Under the pieces are notes generated by a model that saw nothing but the letters and a program-made list of their open reading frames with translations, made no database searches and had not been told where the DNA came from. Shown in pieces: positions 19,292 to 49,943 of a stretch of DNA of 64,000 bases. This stretch comes from Providencia rustigianii DSM 4541 (GTDB lineage Bacteria > Pseudomonadota > Gammaproteobacteria > Enterobacterales > Enterobacteriaceae), in contig NZ_GG703820.1 in NCBI RefSeq assembly GCF_000156395.1, forward strand, positions 288,947-352,946, written 5' to 3'. Position numbers and translations under genes: made by a program. Numbering within the stretch: the stretch's first letter is position 1; the number at the start of each line of letters is the position of its first letter.

Positions 19292-20050
19292 ATGAAACTC
19301 CCGTTTAGGCTACACAAAACCGTTATTATCGTTATTTGCGTTGCACTGGTAACCTTGCTGATGCATGGGGTTTCATACTTGGGCTATAGCCAAAATCAAA
19401 ATCGAGTGGAACAATTTAAGCAATTAACTCAGGTATTAGCTGAGCAAGTGGCATTCAGCTTATCCGATTATATGGTTCCCGGCAGCAAAGATTTTAATTT
19501 AGAACGAATTAATGCCAATCTTAATCATCTCGCCCGAGATAAATATATTTTAGATGCGAGTTTATATACTGCCGCAGGCGTGCTAGTCACTCAAGTCGGT
19601 GAGCCTACAACCGTCAAAGAAAGGTTGGCTATCGATAGCAATGTCGCACTGCAAAATTTTCAATATCAGCTAGTCGTCCCCGTTCAAGGGGAAAAAGAAC
19701 CGAAAGGCTATTTACGCCTAACTATCGATACTGAATTGCTCATCGCAGATACTCAACAAACCGATAACAGCACAAATATTATGCGCACTTTTATATTATT
19801 AGCATTGTGCATCGGATTTATCTTGGCAAATACGTTATTCCGTTTGAAGAAAAAGAAAGGTCAGCAGCAGCCGTTAATTGTCACGCCAGAAGAGAATGAT
19901 GAAAGTGATAATGGCAAGGGAGCCGTACAACAAAACAGCCCCCCACTAAAAACACCGAATAAACGTCCTCACGGAAAACGCCGTAAGGAACCGAGTGCAC
20001 ATCGTTCCAGACGAGTGGTAAAAAAACACGTCAATAAACCAGAAAATTAA
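19292..20050 (+). CDS. smp: Smp/YtjB membrane protein
   Basis: The 252-residue inner-membrane protein is divergent from serB, as in E. coli. It has a first transmembrane segment at about residues 11-29, a periplasmic domain including QVAFSLSDYMVPGSKDFN, and a second segment at about 165-182. The cytoplasmic tail (about 190-252) is strongly basic and longer than in the E. coli protein (214 residues), ending in repeated Lys/Arg clusters (GKRRKEPSAHRSRRVVKK). Function is unknown. The identification rests on position and the N-terminal sequence pattern. Confidence 0.85.
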   Translation: MKLPFRLHKTVIIVICVALVTLLMHGVSYLGYSQNQNRVEQFKQLTQVLAEQVAFSLSDYMVPGSKDFNLERINANLNHLARDKYILDASLYTAAGVLVTQVGEPTTVKERLAIDSNVALQNFQYQLVVPVQGEKEPKGYLRLTIDTELLIADTQQTDNSTNIMRTFILLALCIGFILANTLFRLKKKKGQQQPLIVTPEENDESDNGKGAVQQNSPPLKTPNKRPHGKRRKEPSAHRSRRVVKKHVNKPEN

Positions 20051-20075
20051 TCGAAAAAAACAACCCATTTATTCT

Positions 20076-20870
20076 CTAGATTGACGTCGTATCGAACACG
20101 ATCGGCGCAATTAGCTCCACTTTTCCTTCAACAAGTAACGTTTCTGGTGGTACAGGGAATGGCGCTGCTCGCTGGATAGTCGCCATTGCCTCTTTATCCA
20201 GAATCTTAGTTCCTGATGAGTTAATCAAACTCGCACTCACCAGCCCGCCATGGTTATCAACGATAATTTTTACCTGCGATACTCCTGTAGAACGAAAACG
20301 CAATGCCGCTCTTGGGTAACGCTTGGATTTTGCTAGTCGCTGATGGACTTCACTTTGCCATCCTTGATGGCCGCTCACCGCTGCCGCAGCATTGCTGGAA
20401 AAATTAGCGCTGTTATTCGATGCACTACCGGATGTCGGCACGGAAGTCACCATTGATTCTTGAGGGGAAACCGGCGCGTCTTCCAACACTTTTTTCTCTT
20501 GGATTTGTTGCTTTTTCGGTGGACGTTTTTTCTCGGTAACTCGGGTTAACGTTCCGTTATCTACGAGGGGAGTTTGGGGTAATTTTTCTACTTTTTCAAC
20601 GACTTCAGGTTGAATTTCCTCACGCGTCGCCATCTGCTGTTTTGGGGCGTTATTCACCTCAGGCTCATTCTGCTGTTCAAGCTGATATAGCCCCAGCTGC
20701 AAAGAGATTGCAGGTGGCAAAACTCCAGTTCTCGGAAGATTCGACGTGAACCATCCAATAAAAATCATTGCGAGTGTTCCATGGAAAACAAGACTAACAA
20801 ATAAACCGCCCAGAGGACGAAAAATTGGGCGATCCAGCTGACCCATACTGCTGTTCATATTTTGCCTCAC
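20076..20870 (-). CDS. TonB-family energy transducer, FusB/HasB-like
   Basis: The 264-residue protein has TonB architecture: one N-terminal membrane anchor (about 23-42), a periplasmic Glu/Lys/Pro/Gln-rich spacer (about 65-140, including KKRPPKKQQIQEKK), an Asn/Ser linker and a C-terminal TonB domain (about 175-264, with RLAKSKRYPRAALRFRSTG). It lies divergent from a FecI-like gene and next to a receptor, ABC transporter and M16 protease, so it is probably a dedicated TonB for that system, as FusB is in Pectobacterium. The start could be the first or fifth codon. Confidence 0.88.
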   Translation of the reverse strand: MRQNMNSSMGQLDRPIFRPLGGLFVSLVFHGTLAMIFIGWFTSNLPRTGVLPPAISLQLGLYQLEQQNEPEVNNAPKQQMATREEIQPEVVEKVEKLPQTPLVDNGTLTRVTEKKRPPKKQQIQEKKVLEDAPVSPQESMVTSVPTSGSASNNSANFSSNAAAAVSGHQGWQSEVHQRLAKSKRYPRAALRFRSTGVSQVKIIVDNHGGLVSASLINSSGTKILDKEAMATIQRAAPFPVPPETLLVEGKVELIAPIVFDTTSI

Positions 20871-20907
20871 ATCTTTATTTTTCGCCGATTATAGGCATAA
20901 TACAAAT

Positions 20908-20926
20908 CAAAATGATATTCATTATT
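20908..20926. promoter_or_regulatory. Fur box in the divergent tonB-like/fecI-like control region
   Basis: The 19-mer matches the Fur consensus at 15 of 19 positions, with the core AATGATATTCATT being palindromic. It is 38 bp from the start of the TonB-like gene and about 100 bp from the sigma factor gene, so iron repression of either or both is likely. Confidence 0.7.
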
Positions 20927-21023
20927 ATTAATAAAATAACAATAGTAACTACAAGGTATTGATTTATTTTACAAAGTAAATTTGAGCAAATAATTTGAAC
21001 TCTTTCACTTTTGACACCAGAAA

Positions 21024-21560
21024 ATGACTATCGATAAATCCCTTACCCGCAAGATTAGTGGGGCGTACCAATCAACCCATAGCCAGCTTGTGCGATTTTT
21101 CCGCAATCGGCTAGGTAATAGTAACGATGCGGATGATTTATCACAGGATGTGTTTACACTATGGCTGAACCGTAAAGCGGAGGATCCCGTCAAAGAGAGC
21201 CGCGCTTATCTGTTCAAAATTGCCAGTAATGTGTTAATTGACCATTGGCGACGTAATCAGCAACAAAATCAATCAGCGACTTCGATTGATGATGTCGCTC
21301 ATGAGCATAGTTTCGAGCAAACTGCGGCAGATCCCAGTGAAATATTGGAACATCAGCAACGTATTACGCAGTTAAGTGAAGCCATTGATCTCTTGCCTCC
21401 TCGTCGTCGAGAAGCGTTTTTGCTGTATCGCTTTGATGGCTTATCGCAAAGTGAGATTGCTGAACGGATGGAAATTTCTATCAGTATGGTTGAAAAACAT
21501 ATTGCTGCGGCATTAGTTCACTGTAAAAAATACCTTGAAGATCAGGGCAATAATAAGTAA
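21024..21560 (+). CDS. ECF sigma factor, FecI-like
   Basis: The 178-residue protein has sigma-70 region 2 (about 8-75, including DADDLSQDVFTLWL and SRAYLFKIASNVLIDHWRR) and region 4 (about 115-165, LPPRRREAFLLYRFDGLSQSEIAERM). This is the iron-starvation class that serves TonB-dependent receptors carrying a signalling domain. Its stop overlaps the start of the downstream FecR-like gene (TAATG), so the two are translationally coupled. It probably drives the receptor gene at 22667. Confidence 0.92.
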   Translation: MTIDKSLTRKISGAYQSTHSQLVRFFRNRLGNSNDADDLSQDVFTLWLNRKAEDPVKESRAYLFKIASNVLIDHWRRNQQQNQSATSIDDVAHEHSFEQTAADPSEILEHQQRITQLSEAIDLLPPRRREAFLLYRFDGLSQSEIAERMEISISMVEKHIAAALVHCKKYLEDQGNNK

Positions 21561-22543
21561 TGGCAGACTCAAAAACTCAGCAACTGGATGAACAACAGCG
21601 CATCGATGAAGACGCGGCGCTGTGGTTTACTCGCGTACATAGCCAGCGGCTTAGCGACCAGCAATCTCAGCAATTCAAAGCTTGGCTACAAGCTTCGAAA
21701 GCTCATGCTGATGCTTTTGAATCTATCGCCGGAATTTGGCAAGATTTTGATGAAATGCCACGTCCGACGAGTACTGATATCACGATACCCAAACGCCAAC
21801 TTTCTTTTTTTTGGAAGCCAATGGGTCATCTTGTTGCCGCCTGTTTTATTGCCGCCGTACTCTTTTTACCCTATAGCCACCTACCGTCCATGTTATTAAA
21901 TAACATGACATTAGCCGCCACTGATTCCCCTAAAGAAGTCACTCTATCCGATGGCTCACGACTGTTTCTTAATCACAATACTCGAATCCGCGTCGCCTAT
22001 GAGACCCAAGTTCGCCAAGTGTATTTAGACCAAGGCACCGCTTACTTTAAGGTAAAGTCGAATCCTTATCGTCCATTTATTGTTCAAGCGGATCAACGGC
22101 GGATCCAAGTGGTAGGAACTGAATTCGAAGTCAATAAACAAGGGCAGCAAATCGCGGTAAATGTCAGCCAAGGTATCGTCACCTTTCAAAGCCAAAAAGA
22201 GGCTAAACCGGTATTTTTACTCGCTGGGCAAAGTGCCGTAAGTCCGAAAGTTGATGGCCAAATCGCGTTACGTAACGTTAATCCCCAAGATGTGGCGAGA
22301 TGGCGTTACGGTGAACTGGTTTTTGTGGATAAACCGCTTTCTGATGTTCTTGCAGAATTAAAAACCTATTCAAGTTTCAATGTTGAACTTTCGCCAAGCA
22401 CATTAGCCGCTCGAAAAATCTCTGGTCGAATAAATCTCCAGCGTCCTGAAGCCTTTTTTCAGGCACTTCCCTCATTGCTTCCTGTACAAGTTGTCTATCA
22501 AGACAAAACTAATCTATTGATTATTCAGAATAAACAAAAATAA
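21560..22543 (+). CDS. FecR-type anti-sigma factor / sigma regulator
   Basis: This 327-residue inner-membrane protein relays a signal from the receptor to the ECF sigma factor. The cytoplasmic N-terminal domain (about 15-65, with DAALWFTRVHS and FKAWLQASKAHADAFE) binds the sigma factor. A membrane segment lies at about 90-115. The periplasmic FecR domain (about 125-225, KEVTLSDGSRLFLNHNTRI) is followed by an STN-like C-terminal region that meets the receptor's signalling domain. It overlaps the sigma gene by one base. Confidence 0.93.
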   Translation: MADSKTQQLDEQQRIDEDAALWFTRVHSQRLSDQQSQQFKAWLQASKAHADAFESIAGIWQDFDEMPRPTSTDITIPKRQLSFFWKPMGHLVAACFIAAVLFLPYSHLPSMLLNNMTLAATDSPKEVTLSDGSRLFLNHNTRIRVAYETQVRQVYLDQGTAYFKVKSNPYRPFIVQADQRRIQVVGTEFEVNKQGQQIAVNVSQGIVTFQSQKEAKPVFLLAGQSAVSPKVDGQIALRNVNPQDVARWRYGELVFVDKPLSDVLAELKTYSSFNVELSPSTLAARKISGRINLQRPEAFFQALPSLLPVQVVYQDKTNLLIIQNKQK

Positions 22544-22666
22544 CTGAAAAATATTTTCATTTGCAGGTGAGGATAATTCTCATTTCACCCTCTTCTTAAG
22601 TAGCTTCATTTTTTATTGAACATTTTATCGCACACTTTTTGTGCAGCTTAAGAATAAGGGATATCC

Positions 22667-25420
22667 ATGGCAATTCAATTCACAATCGGCCGATTTAAAC
22701 CGATTGCGCTGTCAGTGGCGGTCGCTAGCGCCTTAGTCAGCCAATCAGTTATCGCTCAAGAACTTACGTTTTCACTACCCGAACAAGGGCTTGCTAGTTC
22801 CATTGAGCAAATTAGCCGTCAAGGGCAAGTTGCACTGTTATACGATAAGGGGCAGCTTAACGGCTTACGCGCCCCCGCATTATAAGGGACTTATTCTCCG
22901 CAAACCGCATTACAAAAAATCCTCATTGGTAGCGGGTTAGAATTAGTCAATGAAAATGGCATGTTAGTGATCCGCCCGCAGAATTTAAACCAAGGCACAT
23001 TGGTTCTGCCCGAAACCCAAGTTTCTGGCGCGGTGCAAAATCACCCATCAATGGATGTGATGTCGGCACCACAATATGTCACCGCAGAAGAAATTAGCCA
23101 AAAAAACACCGGTGACGGCAACATCACAGATTTAATGAAAACCAACCCTGCGGTGCAATTTGCCAATAACGATAGTAACTCCATGAACCAAGGGGAAATC
23201 AAGCCTTCCCGTATTTCTATTCACGGTTCGAGCAGCTACCAAAATGCCTATCGCCTTGATGGCGTCAGTTTCAATAATGACTTTGACCCTGCCGATAATG
23301 GCTTAGGGGAAACGGCAACGAAGCTCAGCAGTAGCGATCAAGGGATCTACATTGATAGCCGCTTGATTGATAGCATGGCAGTCTACGATAACAATATTCC
23401 TGTGGAATTTGGTGGTTTTACTGGGGGCACCGTTGAAGTAAATAGCCGCCGCTGGCAAGGTGAAAATAGCGCCCATGCCTATTATCGCTTGACCCGCTCT
23501 GGCTGGAATAATCTGTTCCACGATTCAACCCAAGCCATTGATACCAGCAAGAATGACACCGCAAACCCTGCTCGTTTCCAGAATCGCTATGATAAAAATG
23601 ATTTTGGTGGTTGGTTTGAACTGGGTGTCACCGAAAATTCTGGGGTGGTATTCTCCGCATCACGCCGTAGCTCGACAATCCCGATGACCGTGACGGGAGG
23701 AACAGGCGTCACACTGAATGGTAATGGGGAATTAGAAGAAATTTATTCCGCTGAAGGTACCCGTAAACAACGCCGAGATTCAGATAACTTTTTCCTCAAG
23801 TACAGCATGAATCTTTCCCCACGAGATTCTGTCGACTTATCAATAAACTATGCCAAATATGATAGCTATCTTTTTGCTAGCTCCGTACTGAACTCTGGCT
23901 ATGACAGCACCCATGATGGTCTTGGCTTTACCGGTGTTTTCAAACACGAATATGACATTGGTAAATTAGAGTTAACGGCAAGTACTCAAGATCTCAAAGA
24001 CGATCGTAAAAACGACCAAACAGACTATGTTGAGTTACTGGATTATAGTGACTGGAAAAATCCTCAATCATTACGTAGTGGTGGTCAAGGGGATCTCACG
24101 ACAGAACAGAGATTGCATTCGGCAAAAGCCGCCCTGCGTTTCAATCCAATCATTGATGGTTTAGGAATTACTCACCAGCCGACAATCGGTTCAGAGATCG
24201 CTTACACCAAAGGAACTTATAAACGAGATAAAGATTATTATCGTTACCGTTTTGTTGGAAATGCCGATAATCTTCAATGGGTTGGTTCAGCCCAAAATAT
24301 TACTCGTTTCCAAGCTGGTACGCACTCAGCTGATTATACAAACTACGCGATTTTCCTCGATGATAATCTTCAGTACGGCAAACTAACCCTACGCCCAGGA
24401 TTGCGTTTAGATCGCGATGATTTTGTTAACCGTACCAACATCGCACCTCGTCTTTCAGGAACTTATGATTTATTTGGAGATCAAAAAACTCAGCTGATTG
24501 CAGGAGCTAACCGTTATTATGGTCGCTCAATGCTGACCTATGCTCTGTATGGTGCACAAAACGCTGGTATGCAAAACTGCCTTTTCATGTGCGATGTTGA
24601 CCCAAGTAAAAACGAATGGAACGATGCCCGTGACTACGAAGGGATTGATTCACTTAAAACACCTTACAATGATGAGTTAACCCTCGCACTGCAACAAGAA
24701 GTTTTATCTACGACTTGGCGTTTACAGTATGTTCATCGTGAAGGCTACGATGAAGTTCGTTCCCGTACAAAATATAATACTCGAGATGCCGATAAACGTA
24801 GTATCCGTATGTATGATAATGGTGGTCGTAGTTCCCACGATACAGTGACTTTATCTGTTAAAAATAGCCAACCTTGGGAATGGGCAGAAGCCTCCCATGT
24901 GATGAACGCATCCTTTACTTGGCAACAAAGCGAAAGTAATACCCCAAAAGACACGGGTTATAACGCTTACGATCCAGCAAATAAAGTTAATCTCAATAAA
25001 GTGTGGTACGACGGAAAAGTCATTGATTCATCAAAGCTTCCATCCACCAGCTTTAACTCACCAATCAAGTTGAATCTCGAACTGACCAGTGTGTGGGATG
25101 AATATAATGTGACATGGTACAACCGCCTGCAATGGTGGGGGTCACGTGACCAAGCTGTTCGTTATGACAACACGTATTACAACGATGCTGAATATGGGCA
25201 ACTGCGTAAATACACCAAACAAAACTTCGCCAGCAAATATACATGGGATACCCGCTTAGGCTGGAAACCTAACTTCGCTTACGGTTTTGGTTTCTCCGTT
25301 GAGGTTAATAATATATTGAATAATAAGAATATTGCAGACCGCTTTATGTTCGATGACCGCGAACTTAAATCCTATGATCCTGGCCGTCAATTCTGGCTAC
25401 AAGTGAATTACGACTTATAA
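22667..25420 (+). pseudogene. TonB-dependent receptor with signalling domain, FusA/YddB-type, interrupted by one in-frame stop
   Basis: A single frame of 918 codons encodes a signal peptide (about 1-30, ending SQSVIAQ), an STN signalling domain (about 31-105), a plug with RISIHGSSSYQNAYRLDGV, and a 22-strand barrel ending in aromatic L-Q-V-N-Y-D-L. One TAA at 22883-22885, at codon 73 within the STN domain, interrupts it; the frame on both sides is otherwise intact. The next in-frame ATG (22961) would give a product without export signal. The upstream region has AAGGGATATCC before the ATG and a Fur-like GGATAATTCTCATTT near 22572. The family imports iron-containing ligands; unless TAA is read through, this copy is inactive. 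Confidence 0.85.
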
Positions 25421-25467
25421 GTTACCGCAATGAGCAATGTCAAAAACCATAACCAAGAAATAGTGCG

Positions 25468-27174
25468 ATGAAGACTATTAAACAATTTTTCTATTTAGTA
25501 ACACCTTTTTGGGGGCAGCGTGCTGCCCTTTTGTGCTGGCTATTACTGTTTGCCTCACTGGGATTAACACTCTCCTCCGTCTGGTTCAATGTCAAAATGA
25601 ACATGTGGAATGGTGACTTTTATAACGCTCTGCAAAAGTTAGATGGACAAGCACTTTACGGGCTATTGCAGTATTTTGTTATTTTAGTCAGTGGGCTAAT
25701 TTTTGTGGTCGTCATGGGCTCTTACCTCAAGCAGATGCTTATTATCCGCTGGCGTAAAGGTATGACCGAACAAGTTTTGAGTCGTTGGTTATCCAGTAAT
25801 AGTAAACACTATATGCTGAGATTAGCCTCCCAAGAACCTGATAACCCAGACCAACGTATCGCGGAAGATATCCGCTTACTGATTGAGTCCACCTTGAATT
25901 TGCTGGTGACGTTCCTGCACTCCATGCTAACACTAATCTCCTTTGCCGCCATTTTATGGACGCTATCTGGCAGCCTCTCGTTTAGTTTCGCAGACAGTGT
26001 TTGGACCATTCCCGGCTATATGTTCTGGGCATGTATTATTTATACTATCTTCGGGATCGCTCTAACCCAGCTGATTGGTTATCCATTACGTCGTTTGCAT
26101 ATGGATAAACAGCGTCGTGAAGCCGATTATCGTAGTAGTTTAATTAACTGCCGCCAGCATGGTGATGCCATCGCCGGACAGCGGGGTGAGAATCAAGATC
26201 GTAAAGAATTAATGGGTCGTTTCAGCGAAATCATCCGTAACTGGAACCAGCTCATTCGTTGTGAACGTAACCTTTCGTTTTATACCGTTGGCTATCAGCA
26301 AGTGACCGCATTAGCCCCTGTATTACTGGCACTGCCCAAATTTTTGGCAGGTGAAATAATGCTCGGTGGGTTGATGCAATTACGCCAAGCATTCTCCAGC
26401 GTTGCCACTTCATTAGGCTGGTTTATTTTTGCCTATAAAGAAATTGCCGCATGGCAAGCAACGGTTGCCCGTTTATATAATTTCGTGGTTTTACTGGAAC
26501 ATGATAAAACCCCTGAAGTCACTATTGAAGAAAATCAATCACCACTCAAGGCGACCGTTAGCTTATTTACCGCAGACCATCGCCCTCTATTGGATAACGT
26601 TTCTCTCAATGTCAAAACTGGCGAATTAGTGCTAGTTTCCGGTCGCTCAGGGATTGGTAAATCGACCTTACTACGAACGTTAAGCGGTCATTGGCCATTC
26701 TTTCATGGCGATATCACGCGAACTCACAGCGTAATGTGGCTACCTCAGCGCCTCTATCTCCCCGTCAGTCGTCTCGATAACTTGTTAGCGTATCCACAAG
26801 ATGCCAGTAAATTTTCACAGGCTGAATTACAACATGCGTTGAGCCTCGTTGGATTAGAAAAGCTTCACCATCAGCTCGCCTTAGAAACGGAATGGAATAA
26901 CCGCTTATCGGGCGGTGAGCAGCAACGGGTGATGTTTGCCCGACTGTTACTCAACCGACCAAAACTGATGTTATTGGATGAAACCACGTCTGCATTAGAT
27001 GAAAACAGCGCGTTAGCCCTGCTACAACTGCTGAAAAACCAGCTCCCTGAAAGCAGCATTGTGTTAGTGAGTCATCAACGCTTTGTCGGTCAGCTCGCTG
27101 ATCAACATGTTGATTTAACTGAGTCCCGCAATGATGCCCCTTTAATGACAGGAACCCCTGAATATGTTTCGTAA
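25468..27174 (+). CDS. YddA-type ABC transporter, permease fused to ATPase
   Basis: The 568-residue protein has an N-terminal six-helix SbmA/BacA-like membrane domain (about 10-330) and a C-terminal ATPase with Walker A GRSGIGKST near residue 392, signature LSGGEQQR near 480 and Walker B LMLLDET. It corresponds to E. coli YddA, whose gene neighbours yddB and pqqL, and to FusD of the ferredoxin-uptake operon, where it is thought to export peptide fragments or move them into the cytoplasm. It follows the receptor by 47 bp and overlaps the protease gene by 11 bp. Confidence 0.92.
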   Translation: MKTIKQFFYLVTPFWGQRAALLCWLLLFASLGLTLSSVWFNVKMNMWNGDFYNALQKLDGQALYGLLQYFVILVSGLIFVVVMGSYLKQMLIIRWRKGMTEQVLSRWLSSNSKHYMLRLASQEPDNPDQRIAEDIRLLIESTLNLLVTFLHSMLTLISFAAILWTLSGSLSFSFADSVWTIPGYMFWACIIYTIFGIALTQLIGYPLRRLHMDKQRREADYRSSLINCRQHGDAIAGQRGENQDRKELMGRFSEIIRNWNQLIRCERNLSFYTVGYQQVTALAPVLLALPKFLAGEIMLGGLMQLRQAFSSVATSLGWFIFAYKEIAAWQATVARLYNFVVLLEHDKTPEVTIEENQSPLKATVSLFTADHRPLLDNVSLNVKTGELVLVSGRSGIGKSTLLRTLSGHWPFFHGDITRTHSVMWLPQRLYLPVSRLDNLLAYPQDASKFSQAELQHALSLVGLEKLHHQLALETEWNNRLSGGEQQRVMFARLLLNRPKLMLLDETTSALDENSALALLQLLKNQLPESSIVLVSHQRFVGQLADQHVDLTESRNDAPLMTGTPEYVS

Positions 27175-29953
27175 AATTACTTTAGCTGCCGCTGTTGCCC
27201 TGCTGCTTGGTGGCTGTGCTGGCAATATGTCGCCGAAAAATCATGGGCAACAGTTGTTGCCTGTTCGCCAAGACTTACAACATTATCAACTCGATAATGG
27301 CTTACAAGTTTACTTGCTGCAACGAGACCAGCCGGGTGTCGAACTGCGTTTATTAGTCAACGCGGGGTCGTTACAAGAAACTGAGCAGCAGCTAGGATTA
27401 GCGCACTTTACTGAGCACATGGCATTCAAAGGTACTAAACATTTCCCGGGAACCACTGGCTTTAAACAGTTGGAGCAACAGGGACTGAAATTAGGAAGCC
27501 ATGTGAATGCAATCACCAGCTTAAACAGCACGTTGTACAAACTATCGTTACCTAATGCAACACCAGCGCAAGTGACCAGTGGATTGCAGGTCATGGCTGA
27601 TTGGGCGGCGAATATGACCTTCGATACAGATGCTTTTGAAAAAGAGCGCCCTGTGATTATCGAAGAGTGGCGTTTACGCCAAGGAATGGGCTACCGCATC
27701 AATGACAGCTTAGAAAAATTACGCTACCACGGTAGCCGCTATGCCGAACGCAATCCGATTGGTTCACTCGATGTGGTTCGCCAAGCCCCCATTGAACAAG
27801 CTAAAAACTATTACCAAACGTGGTACCAGCCTCAGCGTATGAGCTTATTGATTATTGGGGACTTTAATTCTTCGTCAGTTCGCAATGAGGTTAACACCTT
27901 ATTCGCACTTCCGAAGCCAGAAAAAACTTCCCAAGATTCACCGGAGTGGAAGCGCTTTAGCGATTCTAATAATATGTTAGTTCAAGGGATTTTTGATAAA
28001 GAGCAAGGAGCGCGTTATGTTCAGTTTGCTCTGCAAAAAAATGTCTCTGCACCGCTAAATACTCGCCAAGGTCAAGCTGAAGATTTGATGGATAATTTAT
28101 GGTTAACCATCCTAAATCAACGTTTTTCTGTGATGGTGGATAATGGCATTCTGCCGTCTATCAGTATCAATGAGCAGGGATCAATGCTGGATAATCAACG
28201 TCTCCAGCAACTCATGATTATCCATCCAAAAGGCAATGATTATGCGGGAGCCACTGAAGTGTTATTCACGGAGTTGCAGCGTCTTGCCACAGAGCCAGTG
28301 ACTCAGCAAGAATTAGACACAGCAAAACAAGCTATGCTGAAAAAACTCAGCCAACAAGCAGGTTCCGAACAACGTTACAGTAATGACTATATGGCTGGGC
28401 AACTGACCACCGCACTCGAATATGAGATGCCAATGTGGAATAAGCGCCAGCAATTAGATAACAGTTACCAGTTAACAAAAGATATCAAGCCACAAGATTT
28501 ACAACGTCACGTTGCAACACTTTTGCAAGTCGCCTCTCCACGTTTAGCGTTAATTGGCCCTGATACCGATGCCAACAGTGTTAATAAAGCCACCTTTAGC
28601 GAACAATGGCAGAAAATTCGCCAAACCTCTCCGGGTCCTTTTGCCTTACGATCTCAGGCGATTAATTTGCAATTACCCGCAGTTACTAAAGGCTCAATTG
28701 CACAAGAATCTGACTTACTGATCGCCAAAACAGAGCAATGGATATTAAGTAATGGAATCAAGGTTATTGTTAAATCAGATAAAAATCTGAAAGATGATAT
28801 TCAATTCAATTTACAGTTACCCGGTGGACGCTCCTTAGAAACCCCACAAACCGCAGGTTTAACCGATTGGGCGTTAAAACTCCCCGAAACCAGTGGTTAT
28901 GGTAGCTATAGTGCTCGTGATCTAGCCTTGCTCGCAAAACAAAATCAAATTAGTGTGCGACCATACAGTGAGCTACTGACTCACGGTTATCGCGGTAAAA
29001 CGCCAGTCGATAATTTAGAAACTGCACTAAAACTTCTTAACTTAAAACTAACTGCTCCACAATTTAGTGGTGCAAAGTTAGAACAACAGAAACAAGCATT
29101 TGAATTAAATCTGGCAAAAACGCCTGTTGAACGCACTTTCCTCGATCATATTAATCAGCAAAGTTATCAGCACGGCGAGCTATTAGTGATTTCACCACAA
29201 GGTGCTTGGAAGCAATTCACCGCCCAACAATTGCAGCAAGCTAACCGCCAATTATTAACGTCGACGGCAGATATGACGTTGGTGATCACCGGAGCCATGA
29301 ATGCCCGTGAACTGAAACCTTTGTTAGAACAATGGGTTGCTTCTATCTCAGCTCATGATGGTAAGTTGGTATGGCGTAACCAAGGGATCATGCCAAAGAT
29401 GGAGAGCTTTAATCAGCAATATCCCATCAGTAGCAGCGATAAAAGCATGGTCAGCATTCAATTTGCCGCACCAGCCCAGTGGTCACAGCAAGATCAATTA
29501 GCCATGCAGTTAATTGATACGATTGTTAGCCAGCGTTTACGTGGGGAACTACGTGAGAAAGCGAGCGGTATCTATGCCCTTGGATTCTCTCAAATGTTAG
29601 CAAAAAGACCGCAACCTTATTATATGGGACGCTTGAATTTTACTACCTCTCCAGAGCGCGCTTCTGAGATGGTACAAATCGCCCAAAAAACGGTGGAAAA
29701 AATTCGTCAATCCGGTGTGACAGAGAAAGAGTTAACTGAAGCCAAAAATATCTGGCTCACGGAAAATTCGCAGGTAACAGACAGCTCAAGTTATTGGACT
29801 GAAGCGTTAGCTCAAGTGGCAGCGGATGATAAACAGTTCCAACGTATCACTCAAGAGCAAGCAATTATTGAAAAGCTCAGTACTCAAGATATTAACCGGC
29901 TTACTAAGCAATATTTAGGTCAAAACCAGAAAGTATTTATGATGACCCCGTAG
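27164..29953 (+). CDS. M16 zinc protease, PqqL/FusC-like lipoprotein
   Basis: This 929-residue protein is about the size of E. coli PqqL (931). It has two M16 repeats: the N-terminal one carries the inverted zinc motif HFTEH at residues 81-85, with the third ligand Glu probably at 161. A lipobox LGGC with acylated Cys18 and Ala at +2 predicts outer-membrane sorting facing the periplasm. FusC cleaves imported ferredoxin in Pectobacterium to free iron, and the operon position after receptor and ABC genes supports the same role. The start overlaps the ABC gene's end. Confidence 0.93.
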   Translation: MFRKITLAAAVALLLGGCAGNMSPKNHGQQLLPVRQDLQHYQLDNGLQVYLLQRDQPGVELRLLVNAGSLQETEQQLGLAHFTEHMAFKGTKHFPGTTGFKQLEQQGLKLGSHVNAITSLNSTLYKLSLPNATPAQVTSGLQVMADWAANMTFDTDAFEKERPVIIEEWRLRQGMGYRINDSLEKLRYHGSRYAERNPIGSLDVVRQAPIEQAKNYYQTWYQPQRMSLLIIGDFNSSSVRNEVNTLFALPKPEKTSQDSPEWKRFSDSNNMLVQGIFDKEQGARYVQFALQKNVSAPLNTRQGQAEDLMDNLWLTILNQRFSVMVDNGILPSISINEQGSMLDNQRLQQLMIIHPKGNDYAGATEVLFTELQRLATEPVTQQELDTAKQAMLKKLSQQAGSEQRYSNDYMAGQLTTALEYEMPMWNKRQQLDNSYQLTKDIKPQDLQRHVATLLQVASPRLALIGPDTDANSVNKATFSEQWQKIRQTSPGPFALRSQAINLQLPAVTKGSIAQESDLLIAKTEQWILSNGIKVIVKSDKNLKDDIQFNLQLPGGRSLETPQTAGLTDWALKLPETSGYGSYSARDLALLAKQNQISVRPYSELLTHGYRGKTPVDNLETALKLLNLKLTAPQFSGAKLEQQKQAFELNLAKTPVERTFLDHINQQSYQHGELLVISPQGAWKQFTAQQLQQANRQLLTSTADMTLVITGAMNARELKPLLEQWVASISAHDGKLVWRNQGIMPKMESFNQQYPISSSDKSMVSIQFAAPAQWSQQDQLAMQLIDTIVSQRLRGELREKASGIYALGFSQMLAKRPQPYYMGRLNFTTSPERASEMVQIAQKTVEKIRQSGVTEKELTEAKNIWLTENSQVTDSSSYWTEALAQVAADDKQFQRITQEQAIIEKLSTQDINRLTKQYLGQNQKVFMMTP

Positions 29954-29965
29954 TGAGATAAAAAC

Positions 29966-29999
29966 AGCCAACCACGGGAAAAAATACCTGTGGTTGGCT
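29966..29999 (+). terminator. Terminator after the M16 protease gene
   Basis: The stem AGCCAACCAC/GTGGTTGGCT, 13 bp after the stop codon, is followed only by AAATTATT, so the T-tract is weak. It may act in both directions, also ending the gene at 30033. Confidence 0.55.
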
Positions 30000-30032
30000 A
30001 AATTATTCGCTATATTTTCTTCGAGAATCAAA

Positions 30033-31043
30033 TCATAGCATTAGTAAATTTCTGGCTGCTAACTTAATATTTTCTGCTGATAAACTTAATTTATCTATCA
30101 AATAGTTACCTACTTGTTTTTTACTTAAAAAATTACCTTCAGTTTTTATTAATTTCGTTACGTAATGTATTCTGATTGTTAATTCATCAGGAATAATCAT
30201 ATTCTCCAATTTATTGATATGCTCTGACACTTTATTTATTTCTTTACTAGAAATATGCAAACTTTCCAGATTTGCTAATAAAATAGTTTTGATGATATTT
30301 AAAGATGGAAAATACTCTTCCGGCTCACTGATTTTTCTGACTACATTTTTTTGTGGTGATTCAAGAGTAACTAATTGAGGTTTTACCTCTTCTCGGCGAT
30401 TGACTTCACATAGTTTATTATTAAGCCCACTTATAATCTTATTATGTGACTTTGCTTTTAACTGGTTATCCACTACAATGTTTTGGATATCCTCTATAAT
30501 TTTCACTGCCTCTATTTTTGTTTTACCATCAATAACTCTATCAACTCTTGAAATGATTTCATTAACTGTTTTATTCGAAACTGTATCATTATCTTTTTTT
30601 ATTATGACGATATCTTCAAGTGTATGTTCAGGTTGAATATGACTAATATTTTTTTTATTCAAACTAGTTAGTGAGCTATATAATTTTTCCGTTTTATGCG
30701 AAAAATTGTAATTTACTTCACTTTGATTGGCTAAAGTAGTCTTAGGCTTAGCCAATGCCTCCGCTCCCATATTTGATATACACATAGGAATACTTAATAC
30801 TTTATCAATTTTACTAGCGACACCATGATTTTTAAAACTAAACAATTCACTCCTTGCAGATTCTATTTGAATTTTAAAATCGTATTCTGAATAGGAATTT
30901 TTCATACCAATGATAATTTCACTTATTTTCCTTAATGATTTATCGGTAATTTTTTCATTATTCTTTTTTTTAGCAACAGCATCTATTAATGATGTTTTTC
31001 CTGTAATTCTACTACTAAAAATATTCATTAAATTATTCACCAC
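30033..31043 (-). CDS. Hypothetical AT-rich orphan protein
   Basis: The 336-residue protein is not recognised. It is Lys/Asn/Ile/Ser-rich, predicted largely helical, with no signal peptide or membrane span and two cysteines in all. Segments such as EINKVSEHINKLENMIIPDEL suggest coiled or bundled helices. Its base composition is far more AT-rich than neighbouring genes. Two adjacent GTG codons (31043, 31040) lie after AAGGGA, while the ATG at 31028 (MNIFSSRITGKTS) lacks a good site, so a GTG start is likely. It may be a transferred effector-like gene, but nothing in the sequence fixes a function. Confidence 0.65.
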   Translation of the reverse strand: MVNNLMNIFSSRITGKTSLIDAVAKKKNNEKITDKSLRKISEIIIGMKNSYSEYDFKIQIESARSELFSFKNHGVASKIDKVLSIPMCISNMGAEALAKPKTTLANQSEVNYNFSHKTEKLYSSLTSLNKKNISHIQPEHTLEDIVIIKKDNDTVSNKTVNEIISRVDRVIDGKTKIEAVKIIEDIQNIVVDNQLKAKSHNKIISGLNNKLCEVNRREEVKPQLVTLESPQKNVVRKISEPEEYFPSLNIIKTILLANLESLHISSKEINKVSEHINKLENMIIPDELTIRIHYVTKLIKTEGNFLSKKQVGNYLIDKLSLSAENIKLAARNLLML

Positions 31044-48258: not shown

Positions 48259-48279
48259 AACGCCTCCGAAATCACAAAT

Positions 48280-48315
48280 GATAATGATTATCAATCATAT
48301 CTTTGTTTCTGTAAA
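48280..48315 (-). promoter_or_regulatory. Promoter with overlapping Fur box
   Basis: On the minus strand TTTACA (48310-48315), 17-bp spacer, GATAAT (48287-48292) forms a good promoter. The Fur box at 48280-48298 matches the consensus at 15 of 19 positions, including an uninterrupted GATAATGATTATC, and covers the -10. Iron repression of the small membrane protein is predicted. Confidence 0.75.
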
Positions 48316-48425: not shown

Positions 48426-49865
48426 TTATTGCTTCAGTCCCATTGCATCGCGCATGGTAAAGAACAAATCTGTTTGGTCGGTTAGACCCATTACATTGGC
48501 AGCATGTGGACCGTATGCGGCAACACGCAATTGAGCACCAGTATGCTCTTGTGAATCTTCTTCCTCAGAGTTACCGTAGTTCACTACCATCACTGAACCA
48601 TCTTTGGTGATCAGTGCCTGAGTTAAACCCGATGATTTAGTCCCTTCAGGAATAATTTGGCTAGAATGCGAGTGGTCAGCCGTCACGATGACTAGCGTAT
48701 CGCCATGTTTCTTCGCAAAATCTAAGCCAACTTGAACCGCTTGGTCTAATGAAATTGTCTCACCGATTTGTCCGCATGGATTCGCTTTATGATCCTGCTT
48801 ATCGATAGATGCGCTTTCAACTTGTAGGAAGAAACCATTCGGATTCACTTGCAACAAATCAATCGCTTTTTGCGTCATCTGAGCCAATGTTGGTGCATTC
48901 GGGTCGAGTTTAGCGTTTGGTTTACACTCTAACGGCGGGTTATTCAAGTTGCCATGATACGTGGCTTTTGGACCTTCTAATGCAATGGTCATGTTACCAT
49001 CATGGAACAGGCCTAATACTGGCTTATCTTGATTGGCTTCTTTGATTGCATCTAAAGATTTCGCATCACGAACGATACTAAAACCACGTTCGGTTGCCTG
49101 TTGTTCTAATGTTTTTCCTTTGTAATCACCGGCTTTAGCTTCCTGCTTAAAGCTCTTCGCGCCACCGCCTAGCGTAACATCAGCACGCGTAATTAATAGC
49201 TGTTCAGAGATAGAACCACGACCGCCATTTTCTAAAGCATTTGTCGCACATTTCTCACTAGTCTCTTCCGGACCGTAACATTTACGCGCTGTGACGTGAG
49301 AAAATTGTGCCGCTGGTGTCGCATCTTGAATTTCCGAGGTTGTCACGTTACCCGTCGCTTTACCACTACGCTTAGCAAGCTCAATCAGCGTGTCATGGTC
49401 CTTGCCAAATACATCAACCCCTAATGCGCCATTATACGTTTTTACACCTGAAGACCATGCTGTCGCCGATGCCGCAGAATCTGTAACATAATCTGGTTTT
49501 TGGGTCTTTTTATCTAACGCATAGTGAGTATATTGACCTGTAATTGGCAATGCATCGATACCTTTAAAGAAACCGCCAGCACCTTCTGCATAGTTACGTG
49601 CAACAGTAATTTCAGAATCACCCATCCCATCGCCAATAAATAAAATCACGTTTTTTGCTTGGCCATTATGCAGAGCGGCTTTCATGATATCCGTTTGCTC
49701 TGTGGATAAACGACGAGCTCCGCCAAACTTAGTGATATCCCCTTTCGCGGCACGACTTTCTGAAACGGCTTCATTTTTATCTGCCGCATGCGCAGGAATC
49801 GCTGTACCTAACATTAACGCACTTACAGCAACGGCTAACATAGATTTCATAAAATGACCTGTCAT
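48426..49865 (-). CDS. phoA: Alkaline phosphatase
   Basis: The 479-residue periplasmic enzyme hydrolyses phosphomonoesters. A signal peptide (about 1-28, ending AHA) precedes the mature protein. The active-site serine lies in [12 protein letters not shown], metal ligands in LFIGDGMGD and [10 protein letters not shown], and further His in QEHTGAQL. The ATG at 49865 has AAGGA eight bases upstream; the first ATG of the frame is at 49883. A Pho box upstream indicates PhoB control. Confidence 0.95.
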
Positions 49866-49943
49866 AACTGTTTTCCTTGCCAATCAATAAATAAAATAAG
49901 ATGGATTTGCTTCGAATAATGACCAGCATGCTAGAGCAGCCAG

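What the first reader, a model, noticed from the sequence alone, without database searches (positions are those of the whole stretch)
20076..29953. Protease-associated iron-protein import system of Fus type with its own ECF sigma/anti-sigma pair
Seen: adjacent genes for a TonB homologue, FecI-type sigma, FecR-type regulator, STN-containing receptor, YddA-type ABC transporter and M16 protease, with overlapping or tightly spaced coding frames from the sigma factor onward. Established: FusA-FusB-FusC-FusD in Pectobacterium import and cleave ferredoxin, and E. coli keeps yddA-yddB-pqqL. Inference: this locus imports a host or dietary iron protein, cleaves it in the periplasm, and senses it through the receptor's signalling domain. 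As far as I know, a Fus-type system wired to surface signalling has not been described.
Basis: partly seen in the sequence, partly recalled or inferred. Interest (0 to 1): 0.75.

Follow-up and report, generated by a model that had tools for sequence, protein, structure and literature searches.

The report
Self-sensing protein-import cluster, receptor broken here
This Providencia genome carries a gene cluster of the kind predicted to import a foreign protein and cut it up for its iron, joined to its own pair of switch genes that would likely turn it on when that protein is sensed outside the cell; the receptor gene is interrupted by a stop codon in this strain but whole in most relatives.

Summary
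The six genes are real. The receptor belongs with the protein-import receptors: its only solved-structure sequence matches are E. coli YddB and Pectobacterium FusA. The M16 protease matches PqqL and FusC full length; the ABC protein matches YddA. The unit is conserved in order in 23 of 23 other Providencia genomes, with relatives in Proteus, Morganella, Yersinia, Serratia and others. The proposed surface-signalling wiring gains support. Among related clusters with ABC and M16 genes, receptors with the STN signalling domain go with a FecI/FecR pair (45 of 46) and receptors without it never do (0 of 12; kinship uncorrected). A promoter-like block resembling the E. coli fecA promoter precedes the receptor in 40 of 40 Enterobacterales STN loci and occurs once in each of 24 Providencia genomes. 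Two corrections: the window's receptor frame is cut by a TAA inside STN (whole in 22 of 23 relatives), and the import family, with a 'Providencia' receptor cluster, was surveyed in 2019. My searches found no paper describing the sigma wiring. Substrate, import, cleavage and sensing are untested. The protease is a predicted lipoprotein, unlike PqqL.

The parts
20076..20870 (-). TonB homologue (FusB/HasB-like), divergent from the sigma gene
   Evidence: PF03544 4.6e-12; only solved match at E<=0.001 is HasB 2m2k, 2.1e-21; one of 4 TonB_C genes in the genome; present in 23/23 relatives, ORF split in L042 and L053
20910..20929 (.). Fur-like site AAATGATATTCATTATTATT between tonB and sigma
   Evidence: in the window and exact in 23/23 Providencia relatives; 7-1-7 match with 2 mismatches at 20913 (where chance alone gives about 8 matches at <=3 mismatches in the window); Fur consensus recalled
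21024..21560 (+). FecI-type ECF sigma factor
   Evidence: PF04542, PF08281; 31% identity to E. coli FecI, 1e-25
21560..22543 (+). FecR-type anti-sigma/regulator
   Evidence: PF16220 DUF4880 + PF04773 FecR; 24% identity to E. coli FecR, 8e-15; Gly186-Thr187 (22115-22120) aligns with the FecR 181-182 bond
22568..22595 (+). promoter-like block TGAGGATAATTCTCATT ... CTCTTC before the receptor (predicted target of the sigma factor)
   Evidence: 24/24 Providencia, 40/40 Enterobacterales STN+ loci, 0/35 other loci in this place; shares 13 of 14 bases with the E. coli fecR-fecA gap; one site per genome
22667..22885 (+). receptor, first piece: signal peptide (by eye) and first part of STN signalling domain, ending at in-frame TAA 22883-22885
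   Evidence: own STN model 2e-17 at residues 31-72
22961..25420 (+). receptor, second piece: plug and FusA/YddB-type barrel
   Evidence: PF07715 1.5e-7; YddB 6ofr 7.3e-87, FusA 4zgv 2e-69, no other solved structure at E<=1
25468..27174 (+). YddA/FusD-type ABC transporter (SbmA/BacA-like membrane part plus ATPase)
   Evidence: PF06472, PF05992, PF00005; 37% over 552 residues to E. coli YddA, 5e-118
27164..29953 (+). FusC/PqqL-type M16 metalloprotease; lipobox with Cys18 (27215-27217), HFTEH zinc motif residues 81-85 (27404-27418)
   Evidence: PF00675, PF05193; 9ldy 3e-74, PqqL 6ofs 1.9e-61, FusC 6b03 1e-48, each over most of the protein; lipobox and HxxEH

Best explanation
The locus is a Fus/Ydd-type protease-associated import cluster (receptor, linked TonB, ABC transporter, M16 protease) joined to a FecI/FecR-type sigma/anti-sigma pair, predicted to import an extracellular, probably iron-bearing protein and to induce itself when the receptor binds that protein; in this genome the receptor frame is interrupted by a stop codon. 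Inferred steps: Fur likely represses tonB and sigma-fecR when iron is plentiful. In iron lack, the loaded receptor's STN domain would signal to FecR, FecR would be cleaved, and the sigma factor would then read the single fecA-like promoter before receptor-ABC-M16. The linked TonB would power import, and the lipid-anchored M16 protease would cut the protein at the inner face of the outer membrane. The ABC protein would take up a fragment or cofactor. Here the interrupted receptor is predicted to be non-functional, so the circuit should be off unless the stop is an assembly error; intact copies exist in relatives.
For: Receptor barrel: only YddB and FusA among solved structures at E<=1; Foldseek of an intact relative's model ranks YddB 2.7e-43 and FusA 5.1e-40, next FpvA 5.6e-18. 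M16: matches to PqqL and FusC over most of its length, HxxEH present. ABC: YddA 37%. Gene set equals fusA, fusB (TonB), fusC (M16), fusD (ABC) as described in PMC7593965 (passages), plus sigma and FecR. Unit conserved in 23/23 congeners. STN with FecI+FecR in 45/46 loci that have receptor, ABC and M16, against 0/12 without STN. Promoter block in 40/40 Enterobacterales STN+ loci and one per genome in 24/24 Providencia; 13/14 bases shared with the E. coli fecR-fecA gap, the only match in 14 kb of the fec region (2 of 200 shuffles had one). FecR keeps the Gly-Thr bond. Fur-like site exact in 23/23 relatives.
Against: No expression, import or cleavage was measured. The receptor of this genome is broken. 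After allowing for kinship, the STN-FecIR link rests on 4 independent pairs (same direction in 2-4, never opposite; sign test median p 0.25, cannot reach 0.05). Two of the 50 STN loci lack the pair (L134: neither found; L078: contig ends before sigma) and one of 25 STN-less loci (L140) has weak hits to both, another (L141) a weak FecR hit. The promoter block is itself an imperfect palindrome that could bind Fur, and it is absent in the 10 STN+ loci outside Enterobacterales. Substrate unknown; PqqL cut none of the iron proteins tried in PMC6793856 (section 8), and that paper has a section titled 'PqqL and YddB do not support growth during iron limitation in LB media' (title seen).
Confidence: 0.74

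Rival explanations
1. A siderophore- or haem-uptake locus with ordinary FecIR surface signalling; the M16 neighbour is incidental.
For: The FecIR-STN systems in the review passages seen are citrate, siderophore or haem systems (PMC9249621); the TonB resembles HasB; the third-best fold match is the siderophore transducer FpvA.
Against: The receptor's only sequence matches among solved structures are YddB and FusA. ABC and M16 genes both lie near the receptor in 58 of 75 loci, and the 17 without both are all distant receptors of 26-30% identity; both are there in 23/23 Providencia relatives. None of the nine proteins scanned at 19292-31043 is a periplasmic binding protein or FecCD-type permease.
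Confidence: 0.08
2. STN and FecIR are present but the operon is controlled mainly by Fur; the conserved block is a Fur site, not a sigma promoter.
For: The block TGAGGATAATTCTCA matches 11 of 14 positions of the 7-1-7 Fur motif; E. coli ydd/pqqL is Fur-regulated (PMC6793856 section 8) with no FecIR genes in its flanks.
Against: A plain Fur site should recur across the genome and in STN-less sister clusters; the block occurs once per genome and is missing from all 25 STN-less loci in this place; it matches the E. coli fecR-fecA gap.
Confidence: 0.12
3. A protein- or peptide-import system for a non-iron substrate (nutrient peptide or bacteriocin-like protein).
For: The ABC protein matches the SbmA/BacA family; the substrate of YddB/PqqL is unknown; FusA is also the entry receptor of a pectocin (PMC11658791 passages).
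Against: A Fur-like site and FecIR pairing point to iron; PqqL is iron-regulated.
Confidence: 0.2
4. In this strain the locus is a decaying relic.
For: In-frame stop in the receptor; other decayed copies exist: L051 receptor split, L055 M16 split, TonB split in L042 and L053, Symbiopectobacterium L103 and L118 in pieces.
Against: Sigma, FecR, ABC, M16 and TonB are open frames in this genome with M16 and FecR motifs intact; 22/23 congeners keep a whole receptor; a single recent mutation or an assembly error fits as well.
Confidence: 0.45

Closest known systems
Pectobacterium Fus system (FusA, FusB, FusC, FusD)
   Same: FusA-type receptor, system-linked TonB, M16 protease and ABC transporter in one cluster
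   Different: Here the receptor has an STN domain with its own FecI/FecR pair and promoter block; TonB is divergently transcribed; protease is a predicted lipoprotein; substrate unknown; receptor and protease only distantly alike (238 and 169 bits)
E. coli yddA-yddB-pqqL
   Same: YddA-, YddB- and PqqL-type proteins (37% ABC, 25% M16, receptor 296 bits)
   Different: The 13 kb E. coli region shows no sigma, FecR or TonB gene; gene order differs; PqqL has no lipobox and is soluble periplasmic
Protease-associated import systems survey, 'Providencia' FusA cluster (PMC6793856)
   Same: Names Providencia as one of the four largest receptor clusters with FusC homologues
   Different: Main text holds no FecI, FecR, anti-sigma or ECF; figure labels and S1 Table not held, so not checked
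E. coli FecIRA and Serratia HasISR surface signalling
   Same: ECF sigma, FecR-type regulator with Gly-Thr bond, STN receptor, fecA-like promoter block; HasR also has its own TonB, HasB (passage)
   Different: Those receptors import ferric citrate or haem; here the receptor is of the protein-import type with an M16 protease
Sister clusters without STN in Vibrio, Shewanella, Moritella, Gilliamella, Vogesella, Sutterellaceae
   Same: Receptor, ABC and M16 genes together (12 loci)
   Different: No STN, FecI/FecR or linked TonB found (0 of 12 each), no promoter block before the receptor

Membership tests
Fus-type protease-associated import system | FusA/YddB-type TonB-dependent receptor | tested here: met
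   YddB 7.3e-87, FusA 2e-69, no others at E<=1; Foldseek ranks 1 and 2 on an intact relative's model of modest confidence, pLDDT 62; VIA-align near-ties with BtuB
Fus-type protease-associated import system | linked FusC/PqqL-type M16 protease with HxxEH | tested here: met
   long matches to PqqL and FusC; HFTEH at 81-85; linked in 23/23 congeners, in pieces in one, L055
Fus-type protease-associated import system | ABC transporter of FusD/YddA type | tested here: met
   37% over 552 residues to YddA; FusD itself not compared
Fus-type protease-associated import system | system-specific TonB homologue (FusB) | tested here: inconclusive
   TonB_C gene linked in 23/23 congeners and three further TonB_C genes elsewhere in the genome; that it serves this receptor is inference, and FusB itself was not compared
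Fus-type protease-associated import system | soluble periplasmic protease (as PqqL) | tested here: inconclusive
   predicted lipoprotein: lipobox in 23/23 complete Providencia M16 proteins, none in PqqL; location not measured
Fus-type protease-associated import system | import and cleavage of an iron protein | not testable with these tools
   needs binding, uptake and protease assays
FecIRA-type cell-surface signalling | FecI-type ECF sigma and FecR-type regulator adjacent to the receptor | tested here: met
   no NCBIfam FecI or FecR equivalog cut-off reached
FecIRA-type cell-surface signalling | FecR Gly-Thr self-cleavage bond | tested here: met
   window G186-T187 aligns with E. coli G181-T182; bond named in PMC9249621 (passages); cleavage not tested
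FecIRA-type cell-surface signalling | intact STN domain at receptor N-terminus | tested here: not met
   interrupted by TAA in this genome; 22 of 23 congeners have one frame over 900 aa with STN, the 23rd (L051) has STN but a split barrel
FecIRA-type cell-surface signalling | sigma-dependent promoter before the receptor | tested here: inconclusive
   conserved fecA-like block, one per genome; transcription not measured
FecIRA-type cell-surface signalling | ligand-dependent induction | not testable with these tools
   needs reporter or mutant
Haem/siderophore receptor (FecA, HasR, FpvA) | receptor barrel of that family | tested here: not met
   no chain but YddB and FusA matches by sequence at E<=1; fold similarity to the others only at the general TonB-dependent level

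The most novel reading that the evidence does not exclude
A widespread enterobacterial system in which an imported protein is its own inducer: the protein-import receptor is also the sensor, working through a private sigma factor that serves a single promoter per genome, and the captured protein is handed to a protease tethered by lipid to the outer membrane right behind the receptor.
Probability: 0.45. Interest if true: 0.75.

Novelty: new variant of a known kind. Interest (0 to 1): 0.6.

Why it matters
Which proteins are targeted by Fus-like importers beyond Pectobacterium is an open question in PMC6793856 (passages). If this branch induces itself through a private sigma factor with one target promoter, that promoter is a ready-made sensor: a reporter on it could be used to fish the unknown imported protein out of host or gut extracts. 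It would also extend cell-surface signalling from small chelates and haem to whole imported proteins, and the STN-less sister clusters give a natural control for what the signalling domain adds.

Tried and rejected
Haem or siderophore receptor: rejected. An AlphaFold model of the intact relative P0001 (alignment A1, 12 rows) reached only pLDDT 62 with the plug unresolved. VIA-align put BtuB first by Z (19.3, 484 aligned), then YddB (18.2, 631 aligned) and FusA (17.4, 666 aligned), near-ties that show the general receptor fold only; of its 50 rows only FoxA (6i97_A) spans the STN part. The 72-aa receptor piece alone has no Pfam or NCBIfam match; the STN call rests and on my own STN model. In the rows shown, no NCBIfam equivalog cut-off was reached by the sigma, FecR, ABC or M16 proteins. 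A Fur pattern search of the window alone is not above chance; only conservation supports the site, and outside Providencia it was looked for in 13 loci, of which 7 have it with up to 3 mismatches near the right place. The next-best motif hit in the genome (C35:851932, 2 mismatches) lies among integrase-like and phage-like ORFs, by eye, and was dropped. PDB entry 9ldy, the closest M16, could not be traced to a paper. Paper searches for Fus, PqqL or M16 import combined with FecI, FecR or surface signalling listed none that, from title and abstract start, describes the wiring; most listed papers were not opened. PMC7921472 on Pseudomonas fragi uses FUSC (fusaric acid) and FusC together (passages). 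Rows left out of the tree: L087, L103, L118, L119, L129, L132, as split or partial receptors. Neighbourhoods of about 9 kb each side were examined, less at contig ends, so distant sigma genes would be missed.
Full report
What is there. Window 20076-29953 lies in a 3.98 Mb genome (G000, contig C32) of the genus Providencia: several of its 23 same-genus genomes have contigs of the same length as named Providencia records (for instance 351,794 and 217,775 bases). The receptor frame, however, carries a TAA at 22883-22885 inside the STN domain, leaving a 72-aa piece and an 819-aa piece without signal peptide by eye. I therefore compared the two pieces apart.

Is the receptor of Fus type? The 819-aa piece matches two solved structures at E<=1, YddB (7.3e-87) and FusA (2e-69), and nothing else. 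A model of the intact relative P0001, of modest confidence (pLDDT 62), gives Foldseek ranks YddB 2.7e-43, FusA 5.1e-40, then FpvA 5.6e-18. VIA-align gives near-ties with BtuB by Z, but YddB and FusA align over more residues (631 and 666 against 484). The M16 protein matches 9ldy and PqqL over nearly its whole length and FusC over residues 30-863, and has HFTEH. The ABC protein is 37% identical to YddA over 552 residues, M16 25% to PqqL over 963 aligned columns, sigma 31% to FecI, FecR 24% to FecR. The TonB's only solved match at E<=0.001 is HasB; the genome has three other TonB_C genes. The Fus operon is fusA, fusB (TonB homologue), fusC (M16), fusD (ABC), per passages of PMC7593965.

Is the unit conserved? 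The M16 orthologue (79-89% identity, in pieces in G009) is in all 23 other Providencia genomes examined; in the 12 other same-family genomes of that draw no listed match exceeds 34% identity, and all are partial. All 23 keep serB, the smp2 gene, tonB, sigma, fecR, STN part, barrel, ABC and M16 in the same order. The receptor is one frame over 900 aa with STN in 22 of 23; L051 has a split barrel. Among 125 proteins found with the 819-aa piece (120 listed), named STN-bearing relatives come from Providencia, Moellerella, Yersinia, Cedecea, Citrobacter and Pseudomonas solani, while named Vibrio, Shewanella, Moritella and Endozoicomonas relatives carry no STN annotation. In a sample of 197 genomes of the order, 12 including this one have a receptor at E<=1e-120, so the system is sporadic; whether those carry STN was not looked at.

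Does STN go with the sigma/FecR pair? I annotated 75 named loci (the best of 121 relatives found, capped at 80) with models built from the window genes. Eleven of these are Providencia, at least some being the same genomes as. Sigma and FecR lie near the receptor in 48 of 50 STN loci and in 1 of 25 STN-less loci. Within the 58 loci that also have the ABC and M16 genes, the figures are 45 of 46 and 0 of 12 (Fisher p 1.5e-11, not corrected for kinship). The exceptions: L078 (contig ends before sigma, FecR present), L134 (neither found), L140 (weak hits to both though STN-less) and L141 (weak FecR hit only). In five of the six Pseudomonas loci the pair lies downstream on the other strand; Halomonas has it about 2 kb upstream. 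On a tree of 71 receptors (barrel columns, six of the 75 left out, window piece and YddB added) STN changes state 4 times and FecIR 6 times; of 4 independent pairs FecIR goes the same way in 2-4 (mean 3.3) and never the other way, but four pairs cannot reach significance. Long branches such as YddB are placed unsurely in that quick tree.

Is there a promoter for the sigma factor? The 123-base gap between fecR and the receptor holds AGGTGAGGATAATTCTCATT in 24 of 24 Providencia, followed by CTCTTC in 23 and by CTCTAC in L055. With 0-2 mismatches the block TGAGGATAATTCTCATT stands just upstream of the receptor in 40 of 40 Enterobacterales STN loci (Providencia, Proteus, Morganella, Yersinia, Serratia, Klebsiella, Citrobacter, Cedecea, Symbiopectobacterium and one unnamed). 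It is there in none of the other 35 loci, that is 25 STN-less and 10 STN loci of other orders; L120 and L122 have 3-mismatch hits elsewhere on the other strand. In Proteus my open-frame caller starts the receptor upstream of the block, so the true start is probably later. At up to one mismatch the block occurs once in each of 24 Providencia genomes, without mismatch, and the reversed control once in all 24 together. E. coli K-12 has AAAATAATTCTTATTTC between fecR and fecA; the 14-mer ATAATTCTCATTTC matches there with one mismatch and nowhere else in 14 kb, while 2 of 200 shuffles had a match. The role of this region as the FecI promoter is recalled. The tonB-sigma gap has AAATGATATTCATTATTATT, exact in 23 of 23 relatives and close to the recalled Fur motif; in the window alone such matches are not above chance.

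Other features. FecR keeps the Gly-Thr bond that PMC9249621 names as the self-cleavage site (passages). The M16 protease has a lipobox in 23 of 23 complete Providencia copies (the window and 22), in 36 of 44 complete copies of the named STN loci (which include Providencia again) and 8 of 11 of the STN-less loci; Yersinia thracica, proxima and massiliensis, three Gilliamella and a few others do not fit the pattern, and neither does PqqL, which is soluble periplasmic (PMC6793856 section 8). The HxxEH motif is in 23 of 23, 43 of 44 and 11 of 11. The residue after the cysteine is Ala in the window, which by the recalled Lol rule would send the protein to the outer membrane.

Mechanism, shown and inferred. 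Shown: gene content, order, conservation, co-occurrence of STN and FecIR, conserved blocks, motifs, and the broken receptor frame. Inferred: Fur repression; sigma recognition of the block; STN-FecR signalling; protein import powered by the linked TonB; cleavage by M16 at the membrane; uptake of a fragment or cofactor by the ABC protein; iron as the gain. In this strain the receptor piece that could fold as a barrel has no signal peptide, so the system is predicted to be off here while the other genes stay open.

Known or new. PMC6793856 (abstract, sections 6, 8, 10, 15 and passages read) surveyed such systems and names a 'Providencia' receptor cluster with FusC homologues; its main text holds no FecI, FecR, anti-sigma or ECF, but figure labels and S1 Table are not held. 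A review of surface signalling does not contain the word ferredoxin (PMC9249621); a review of TonB-dependent uptake treats FusA and FecI in separate passages (PMC11658791). Searches listed no paper that brings them together (listings; most not opened). I therefore file it as a new variant of a known kind: a protease-associated importer with built-in surface signalling and a predicted membrane-anchored protease.

Noticed in passing
window 22883-22885: In-frame TAA splits the receptor gene in this genome; 22 of 23 congeners keep it whole.
   Followed up: yes
window 23501-24800: The barrel centre is among the fastest-changing parts of the locus (65-75% DNA identity to congeners other than L038, leaving aside one partly aligned row), yet L038 (G014) is 82% there while no closer than its neighbours elsewhere: a sign of receptor-allele exchange between species, as for receptors exposed to phages or bacteriocins.
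   Followed up: partly
   Followed up: partly
window 30033-31043 (-): 336-aa ORF after the M16 gene with no Pfam, NCBIfam or PHROG match; in the 2-3 kb searched beyond M16, partial matches of 25-39% identity in 4 of 23 congeners: a variable gene of unknown role.
   Followed up: partly
window 48279-48293: Perfect Fur-like palindrome TGATAATGATTATCA in the gap before an alkaline-phosphatase-like gene 48426-49883 (named by eye).
   Followed up: no
L110, L111, L112, L121, L124: Five Pseudomonas STN clusters keep the sigma/FecR pair downstream of M16 on the opposite strand and lack the enterobacterial promoter block and a linked TonB: another arrangement of the same parts.
   Followed up: partly
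PDB 9ldy: The closest solved M16 (3e-74) is an entry named only 'Peptidase, M16 family'; no paper found.
   Followed up: partly
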